Shown: in pieces, positions 21,310 through 21,866 of the stretch
Layout of the letters: each line of letters begins with the position of its first letter
Numbering within the stretch: the stretch's first letter is position 1
DNA from: a virus
Strand: one strand, 5' to 3'
Virus record (IMG/VR): IMGVR_UViG_3300033388_000598
Location: 1 to 35,490 of that record
DNA: 35,490 nt
Made by a program: the position numbers and the translations under genes
Notes under the pieces: generated by a model
Told to the model about the DNA's origin: nothing
Databases searched by the model: none
What the model saw: only the letters and a program-made list of their open reading frames with translations

Positions 21310-21498
21310 ATGTATTGTAAATGTGGAGAAAAAGTACACCCTGTACGACTAGAATTAGGTTATAAAACTTGTGTTAAACACAGTCAAACTCAAACATACT
21401 CGTATGTACCTATTATCGAGCACAAAACAGGTAATACAATACAAATTGTCAGTCAAGAGGTGAGCGCTTCAGTTCACCGAGCTTGGCGGCGTAAATAA
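21310..21498 (+). CDS. Small zinc-finger-like protein (62 aa)
   Basis: Cysteines at positions 3, 5 and 20, with His residues at 10 and 23 (MYCKCGEKVHPVRLELGYKT, then CVKH), suggest a small zinc site of DksA/TraR or zinc-ribbon character. A HKTGNTIQI segment follows near residues 38-46. Similar short proteins occur in marine phages. Its TAA stop ends at base 21498, and the tRNA-like element begins at the very next base. Confidence 0.6.
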   Translation: MYCKCGEKVHPVRLELGYKTCVKHSQTQTYSYVPIIEHKTGNTIQIVSQEVSASVHRAWRRK

Positions 21499-21592
21499 GG
21501 GCGTGAAAATGGTTAGTTGAAAATGAACTGGTGAGGGATCGTTATGAACTCAGGAATTTTTCAAAACGCAGGTTCGATTCCTGCCACGTCCA
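21499..21592 (+). ncRNA. tRNA-like RNA with tmRNA-type architecture (94 nt)
   Basis: GGGCGTG (21499-21505) pairs fully with CACGTCC (21585-21591) as a 7-bp acceptor stem. The third pair is G-U (G3:U70), the discriminator base is A (21592), and both are alanine identity features shared by tRNA-Ala and tmRNA. The T arm is perfect: stem GCAGG/CCTGC (21568-21572, 21580-21584) with loop TTCGATT. Between them there is no D arm and no canonical anticodon arm. Instead TTGAAAA (21517-21523) pairs with TTTTCAA (21558-21564), and an inner TGAG/CTCA stem follows. This resembles the acceptor, short D-loop and P2 helix of the tmRNA tRNA-like domain. No CCA is encoded. A degenerate or intron-bearing tRNA remains possible. 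Confidence 0.6.
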
Positions 21593-21608
21593 CTAAAACA
21601 AATAAATT

Positions 21609-21866
21609 ATGAGTAAATACAACGGATGGACTAACTACGCTACTTGGCGTGTAAATTTAGAAATACTCGGAGATATCGAGTTTGAAGAGCAGGTTTCTGC
21701 AGATTATTTAAAAGAAATAGTATATGACTGCGTTTTGAACAAGAAAGTAGCAAATGATTGTTTAGCAGCGGATTACGCTAGAGCTTTTTTAAGTCAAGTA
21801 AACTATTATGAGATCGCTGAGCATATCAACGAAGAACTAGAACTACAAACAAATTACGAACACTAA
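21609..21866 (+). CDS. GWTNY-type phage protein (85 aa)
   Basis: The N-terminus YNGWTNYATWRVNLEI carries the G-W-T-N-Y-x-T-W-x-V-N-L motif of a widespread uncharacterised family (DUF7249-like, from memory). The rest is acidic and helical. It begins 16 bases after the tRNA-like element. Its last codons overlap promoter copy 5. The family's function is unknown. Confidence 0.7.
   Translation: MSKYNGWTNYATWRVNLEILGDIEFEEQVSADYLKEIVYDCVLNKKVANDCLAADYARAFLSQVNYYEIAEHINEELELQTNYEH

What the first reader, a model, noticed from the sequence alone, without database searches (positions are those of the whole stretch)
21499..21592. tRNA-like RNA with tmRNA-type fold and alanine identity, but no anticodon or tag
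Seen: a complete 7-bp acceptor with G3:U70, A73, a perfect T arm (GCAGG-TTCGATT-CCTGC), a single-stranded D-like stretch containing GG, and a 7-bp TTGAAAA/TTTTCAA helix where an anticodon arm would be, capped by TGAG/CTCA. Known: alanyl-tRNA synthetase reads G3:U70, and tmRNA has this acceptor/T-arm plus P2 helix in place of the anticodon arm. Inference: it may be an alanylatable tRNA mimic, perhaps a stripped-down tmRNA acting in trans-translation or draining Ala-tRNA resources, encoded inside an early operon exactly after a stop codon. No tag ORF of tmRNA kind is visible.
Basis: partly seen in the sequence, partly recalled or inferred. Interest (0 to 1): 0.82.

Follow-up and report, generated by a model that had tools for sequence, protein, structure and literature searches.

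The report
Phage mini-tmRNAs without a tag
Many marine bacterial viruses carry a cut-down copy of the bacterial ribosome-rescue RNA (tmRNA) that keeps the part loaded with alanine but has lost its protein-tagging message, in its place carrying interchangeable RNA hairpins; it probably jams or redirects the host's ribosome rescue during infection.

Summary
The structure is real and is not a lone oddity. Window 21499-21595 fits the Rfam tmRNA model end to end with the whole mRNA-like domain deleted (37.8 bits, E 1.7e-15, below the curated cut-off of 47). It fits the tRNA model less well (28.3 bits). I found more than 90 distinct relatives (60-190 nt) in viral contigs; several exceed the Rfam tmRNA cut-off. 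In related phages collected without using the RNA itself, 27 of 30 carry it at the same site, 0-470 nt behind a conserved 62-aa zinc-finger-like gene; all 27 keep G3:U70 and A73. The central (P2) helix differs in sequence in nearly every phage but stays paired (covariation score 0.389 versus 0.088 shuffled). The short forms have no real tag frame, whereas full-length phage tmRNAs in the same scan do. The P2 tip carries interchangeable hairpin modules, shared between backbones, free-standing nearby, and nested in one another. CDS-less tmRNAs have a precedent: mycobacteriophage DS6A, whose RNA is reported to inhibit host tmRNA. Best reading: an alanylated decoy of host trans-translation. Identity is well supported; function is inferred. 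New: the family's size, its fixed place, and the modular caps. New variant of a known kind.

The parts
21499..21505 (+). acceptor stem, 5' strand (GGGCGTG)
   Evidence: 7 bp with 21585-21591; pair 4:69 is C:G, A:U, G:C or U:A among homologues while 3:70 stays G:U
21506..21516 (+). single-stranded D-like stretch with GG (AAAATGGTTAG)
   Evidence: GG invariant in 47 homologues; shorter than the tmRNA D loop of type B relatives (GGTTTTGACG)
21517..21523 (+). P2-like helix, 5' strand (TTGAAAA)
   Evidence: 50 distinct P2s: own mean helix run 5.6 bp, best of 10000 permuted means 3.14; 6 of 6 counted pairs with two-sided changes
21524..21557 (+). P2 cap, module M6; core GAGGGATCGTTATGAACTC at 21533-21551
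   Evidence: same module caps another TLD backbone (L220) and occurs outside TLDs in L096, L131, L144, L125, L089, L257
21558..21564 (+). P2-like helix, 3' strand (TTTTCAA)
   Evidence: pairs with 21517-21523; see above
21568..21584 (+). T arm GCAGG-TTCGATT-CCTGC
   Evidence: 5 bp; compensatory changes in two pairs among homologues
21585..21591 (+). acceptor stem, 3' strand (CACGTCC), U70 at 21589
   Evidence: G3:U70 in 47 of 47 aligned homologues and in 27 of 27 gathered without the RNA pattern
21592..21595 (+). A73 and CTA tail (CCA presumably made by host trimming and CCA addition)
   Evidence: 97 of 98 short relatives end in ACTA; sampled Bacteroidota host tmRNAs do not encode CCA either (ACTT in two, ACCG in one)
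21310..21498 (+). 62-aa ORF (p62), CxC...CxxC zinc-finger-like, ends on the base before the RNA
   Evidence: 27 of 30 loci with p62 found without the RNA pattern carry the RNA 0-470 nt downstream; no Pfam, NCBIfam or PHROG match
21609..21866 (+). 85-aa DUF7249-like ORF downstream
   Evidence: Pfam DUF7249 E 1.7e-5, just under its cut-off; p62 - RNA - DUF7249-like order in 23 loci, some of them overlapping copies of one contig

Best explanation
It is a phage tmRNA reduced to its tRNA-like domain (TLD): acceptor stem, D-like stretch, P2 helix and T arm, with the mRNA-like domain and pseudoknots replaced by a short exchangeable hairpin. It is transcribed with the p62 operon, cut out by host tRNA-processing enzymes and charged with alanine by host AlaRS through G3:U70/A73. 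It then competes with the host's own tmRNA for AlaRS, EF-Tu, SmpB and stalled ribosomes. Having no resume codon or tag, it blocks or short-circuits trans-translation in the infected cell. Shown here: TLD homology, conserved structure, invariant alanine identity, absence of a tag, conserved location, no phage SmpB, SmpB and tmRNA in sampled Bacteroidota genomes. Inferred: expression, charging, SmpB/ribosome binding, inhibition.
For: RF00023 end-to-end matches: window 37.8 bits E 1.7e-15 and 11 of 13 related records at E 1e-16 to 1e-12; type B, L173 and L190 above the curated cut-off, up to 66 bits. Helix covariation. G3:U70 and A73 in all 27 unbiased homologues although the neighbouring pair varies. 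9 of 10 full-length phage tmRNAs end a frame in a tag-like xAA* or similar; among roughly 100 short ones (<190 nt) none has an xAA tag, and 2 of 101 have a chance-like VVV* end. In 84,980 bacterial/archaeal genomes the same 3' pattern returns mostly full-length tmRNAs, plus some ordinary tRNAs; clear short forms lie on phage-like contigs in MAGs. No SmpB in 27 phage records; SmpB and full tmRNA in three Bacteroidota genomes. CDS-less tmRNA of phage DS6A reported to inhibit endogenous tmRNA in E. coli (PMC11915505, citing Mao et al. 2009). Same kind of RNA in unrelated phage contexts: SSB-RNA-DNA polymerase (L190), RecE/Erf (L173), terminase (L172, L245).
Against: No expression, charging or binding data. 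The D-like stretch of the window's type is 3-4 nt shorter than in tmRNA and lacks the UUCGAC-like segment, so SmpB binding may be weak. The hypervariable modular caps are not explained by a simple SmpB/AlaRS decoy. The DS6A experiment was read only through a citing paper. Three related phages with p62 lack the RNA (L103, L104, L116).
Confidence: 0.55

Rival explanations
1. Tag-less ribosome rescue for the phage's benefit: the alanylated mini-tmRNA enters ribosomes stalled on broken messages and takes over the peptide without tagging it, so that ribosomes are recycled and phage proteins are not marked for proteolysis, as proposed for mitochondrial tmRNAs without a tag.
For: Same anatomy as tag-less mitochondrial tmRNAs, which persist together with SmpB (PMC11915505, PMC7050145). 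Alanine identity kept.
Against: No known way for a TLD without a resume codon to release the ribosome; DS6A data point to inhibition.
Confidence: 0.15
2. Natural tRNA scaffold: the TLD mainly serves as a nuclease-resistant, self-processing carrier that displays interchangeable RNA modules (decoys, antisense or protein-binding hairpins) on its P2 helix.
For: Caps are hypervariable and modular: identical caps on different TLD backbones (window/L220, L152/L272), the same modules free-standing nearby, and modules nested in the tips of others (L132 module split by M9 in L108, L249, L261). Engineered tRNA scaffolds replace the anticodon arm in just this way (PMC3753655).
Against: A pure carrier would not need an invariant G3:U70. 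Some minimal forms have only a tetraloop (L173), that is, no cargo.
Confidence: 0.2
3. Decoy for host defence toxins that attack the tRNA acceptor end or elbow.
For: Phages of this group also carry other anticodon-less tRNA-likes with CCA-like tails; fast-changing caps fit an arms race.
Against: Strict alanine identity points to aminoacylation; no matching toxin identified.
Confidence: 0.08
4. Degenerate relic or attachment-site remnant of host tmRNA.
For: tmRNA genes are common integration sites (PMC9004378, PMC11915505).
Against: Both acceptor strands, D-like stretch, P2 and T arm are kept under covariation; no integrase match among the neighbouring genes scanned; several unrelated contexts.
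Confidence: 0.02

Closest known systems
CDS-less tmRNA of mycobacteriophage DS6A (Mao et al. 2009, described in PMC11915505)
   Same: phage tmRNA without a tag frame; by the paper's description a form similar to the ~65-bp plastid ones
   Different: DS6A infects mycobacteria and was not available in the collections searched, so it was not aligned; here there are more than 90 distinct forms, mostly in Cellulophaga/Tenacibaculum-phage relatives, at a fixed site next to p62, with exchangeable P2 caps
Bacterial one-piece tmRNA (RF00023)
   Same: acceptor with G3:U70 and A73, GG in the D-like loop, P2 helix, T arm; several relatives exceed the curated score
   Different: no mRNA-like domain, pseudoknots, resume codon or tag; 60-190 nt instead of about 300-430
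Mitochondrial and plastid tmRNAs without tag
   Different: organellar; mitochondrial ones mostly permuted; no shuffled caps reported in what I read
Full-length phage tmRNAs (e.g. Cellulophaga phage Calle_1; L196, L206, L218)
   Same: same TLD, phage-borne
   Different: Calle_1's annotated tmRNA is 360 nt; those in the viral contigs carry tags such as VAA, AVAA and ALAA
Engineered tRNA scaffold (PMC3753655)
   Same: foreign hairpin in place of the anticodon arm
   Different: synthetic; made from a tRNA, not a tmRNA

Membership tests
tmRNA (RF00023) | tRNA-like domain: acceptor, T arm, D-like loop with GG, P2 helix in place of the anticodon arm | tested here: met
   end-to-end RF00023 match, E 1.7e-15 for the window; relatives above the curated cut-off
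tmRNA (RF00023) | score at or above the curated gathering score of 47 bits | tested here: not met
   window 37.8 bits; type B, L173 and L190 relatives do meet it
tmRNA (RF00023) | alanine identity G3:U70 and A73 | tested here: met
tmRNA (RF00023) | mRNA-like domain with tag reading frame and pseudoknots | tested here: not met
   34-nt cap only; no xAA tag in the short set
tmRNA (RF00023) | SmpB partner | tested here: inconclusive
   none in the phages, present in sampled Bacteroidota genomes; binding not testable here
CDS-less tmRNA (DS6A, mitochondrial, plastid) | TLD kept, tag frame lost | tested here: met
CDS-less tmRNA (DS6A) | inhibits endogenous tmRNA when expressed | not testable with these tools
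   reported for DS6A
ordinary tRNA (RF00005) | cloverleaf with D arm and 7-nt anticodon loop; curated score 29 | tested here: not met
   28.3 bits, no ARAGORN call on the window
permuted two-piece tmRNA (RF04321) | 3' acceptor half upstream of the 5' half | tested here: not met
   both halves in standard order joined by one hairpin; only a 22.3-bit match using bases inside the next ORF

The most novel reading that the evidence does not exclude
A natural, modular RNA display system: marine flavophages keep an alanylatable mini-tmRNA as a standard carrier and swap, nest and recombine small structured RNA modules on its P2 helix and in neighbouring scaffolds, giving each phage its own set of RNA effectors against the host's translation or defence machinery.
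Probability: 0.25. Interest if true: 0.92.

Novelty: new variant of a known kind. Interest (0 to 1): 0.74.

Why it matters
CDS-less tmRNA is a rarity in the literature: a 2025 database lists 9 'standard, no CDS' forms among 97,179 sequences (PMC11915505). Here one scan of viral contigs yields more than 90 distinct short forms, so the loss of the tag is a recurrent, selected state in phages. It makes testable whether phages attack or redirect trans-translation, and what a TLD does on a ribosome without a message. The exchangeable caps are a hypervariable RNA locus that a specialist would not expect. Annotation pipelines miss the window's form: it scores below both the Rfam tmRNA and tRNA cut-offs, and ARAGORN makes no call.

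Tried and rejected
Ordinary tRNA: no ARAGORN call on the window; tRNA-model score below cut-off and 9.5 bits under the tmRNA model. A few short relatives do get ARAGORN calls in isolation: four as tRNAs (some look like genuine tRNAs caught by the filter) and one as a tmRNA with an implausible tag. Two-piece permuted tmRNA: order of halves wrong. Hidden short tag: no xAA ending among forms shorter than 190 nt. Chance. Attachment site: structure under covariation, several unrelated contexts, no integrase match among the scanned neighbours. Phage-encoded SmpB: none in 27 records. p62 as a known family: no Pfam, NCBIfam or PHROG match and absent from isolate phages; the DksA/TraR-like look of its Cys pattern is only my reading. 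Modules as known Rfam RNAs: nothing credible in L142 2950-3900 besides the TLD. blastn of the element in isolate phages gave only T-arm matches; inspected isolates carry full-length (Calle_1 360 nt, Moab 268 nt) or apparently permuted tmRNAs. DS6A is not in the collection and Mao et al. 2009 is not held.

Full report
Observation. The described structure is present at window 21499-21595 on the + strand, beginning on the base after the stop codon of a 62-aa ORF. ARAGORN calls nothing in the window. Rfam's tmRNA model matches the element from its first to its last position with the internal domain skipped (37.8 bits, E 1.7e-15; curated cut-off 47); the tRNA model gives 28.3 bits (cut-off 29). In randomised windows such an acceptor + T-arm + GG arrangement occurs 0.05 times per window. 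Folding energy by itself is not striking.

Relatives. The window is a viral record from IMG/VR. Its primase/helicase has many relatives in IMG/VR, and among isolates is nearest to Cellulophaga phage phi10:1 and Tenacibaculum phage JQ (41.6% and 37.5% identity). Scanning the retrieved loci gave the same kind of RNA in several sequence types. After filtering, 98 distinct short sequences (60-190 nt, median about 80) remain in 133 loci, some of which are overlapping copies of the same contig. 95 of the 98 have G3:U70 and 97 end in ACTA; five also receive ARAGORN calls, a few of which look like ordinary tRNAs. This set is partly selected by the pattern, which fixes U70.

Unselected sample. In 30 loci that hold the p62 gene and were found only through protein searches, 27 (window included) have the RNA 0-470 nt downstream, every one with G3:U70 and A73; L103, L104 and L116 lack it. 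The gene order p62 - RNA - DUF7249-like ORF holds in 23 loci, including a 56-kb contig of a Bacteroidetes MAG.

Structure. In an alignment of 47 distinct sequences (A1) the acceptor and T stem pair in 100% of cells and the P2 helix in 80%. All six counted P2 pairs show two-sided changes, and the covariation score is 0.389 against 0.088 for shuffles and at most 0.079 for slid partners. A permutation test that swaps 3' strands between sequences agrees: own mean run 5.6 bp, best of 10000 permuted means 3.14. Pair 4:69 changes between C:G, A:U, G:C and U:A, while the neighbouring 3:70 stays G:U. I read this as selection for alanine identity, since a G:U in a stem would otherwise drift to G:C or A:U.

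tmRNA affinity. Type B (GGGGGTG...GGTTTTGACG...GGAAGACAG...), the 62-nt L173 RNA with a GCAA tetraloop on P2, and L190 exceed the Rfam tmRNA cut-off although nearly the whole middle of the model is absent. In bacterial and archaeal genomes the same 3' pattern retrieves mostly full-length tmRNAs, with some ordinary Leu/Tyr/Ala-type tRNAs; the clear short forms (L285, L319, L320, L361) lie on phage-like contigs in MAGs. Among phage sequences, 9 of 10 full-length forms end a frame in a tag-like sequence, as does the compact 242-nt L188; the shorter ones have no xAA tag. So the short RNAs are tmRNAs reduced to the TLD. They occur in several unrelated phage settings, which suggests repeated reduction or exchange.

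Caps. The P2 tip is not random. Recurrent modules are found on different TLD backbones (the window's cap on L220; L152's on L272), free-standing in nearby intergenic RNA, inside a second scaffold (GACGAGTA..TTAATTAGG...ACATAACTGA), and nested in one another: the L132 module has its tip replaced by module M9 in L108, L249 and L261. Apart from the TLD, none is recognised by Rfam in the stretch tested.

Mechanism. The phages carry no SmpB, whereas sampled Bacteroidota genomes have SmpB and a full tmRNA. From established knowledge, AlaRS reads G3:U70 without an anticodon, and EF-Tu and SmpB act on the TLD. [quoted passage not shown] coli, and that tag-less mitochondrial tmRNAs persist with SmpB (PMC11915505; PMC7050145). 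I therefore commit to a decoy or antagonist of host trans-translation, with tag-less rescue and natural scaffold as rivals. The short D-like stretch of type A argues for caution about SmpB binding. Expression, charging, binding and effect are all inferred.

Novelty. CDS-less tmRNAs are known but rare (9 'standard, no CDS' among 97,179), and full phage tmRNAs are known (402 phages, 2.3% of genomes, in PMC9004378). I found no report in the held library of a large phage family of TLD-only tmRNAs with exchangeable caps; subscription papers were not searchable. I classify it as a new variant of a known kind.

Noticed in passing
L142:1206, L125:1673, L134:1627, L120:1644, L108:601, L184:10457 and about 25 others: A second tRNA-like family of about 43 nt: acceptor, GGTT stretch and T arm with no anticodon arm at all (TGACATAATGGTTAATGTGAGTTCGATTCTCACTATGTCAACTA), acceptor pairs covarying, about 1.5-2 kb upstream of the mini-tmRNA.
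   Followed up: partly
L139:814, L144:1802, L112:2606, L142:3664, L089:203: A third tRNA-like element of about 85 nt starting AACTAGGTATGG and ending ACTAGTTAC(T/A)A, often just upstream of the mini-tmRNA; no ARAGORN call.
   Followed up: no
L108:2855-3000, L249:8510-8660, L261:12990-13140 against L132:2328-2455: Nested RNA modules: the hairpin tip of one module replaced by another complete hairpin module.
   Followed up: partly
L361:5160-5680: One phage contig with two mini-tmRNAs in tandem; the cap of the first recurs as a free-standing hairpin between them.
   Followed up: no
window 21310-21498 and homologues: p62: conserved 62-70 aa protein with CxC...CxxC, reminiscent of the DksA/TraR finger, next to the RNA in 27 of 30 loci; no family match.
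   Followed up: partly
L188:2650 (- strand): Unusually compact phage tmRNA of 242 nt that still has a tag ending FALAA.
   Followed up: no
L096:2847-2900: A 56-nt tRNA-like at the syntenic place with A3:U70 and G73 instead of G3:U70 and A73.
   Followed up: no
tRNA-like elements and tRNAs of these phages, e.g. L139:1050, L161:2764: 3' tails read CTA or CAA where CCA would be encoded.
   Followed up: no
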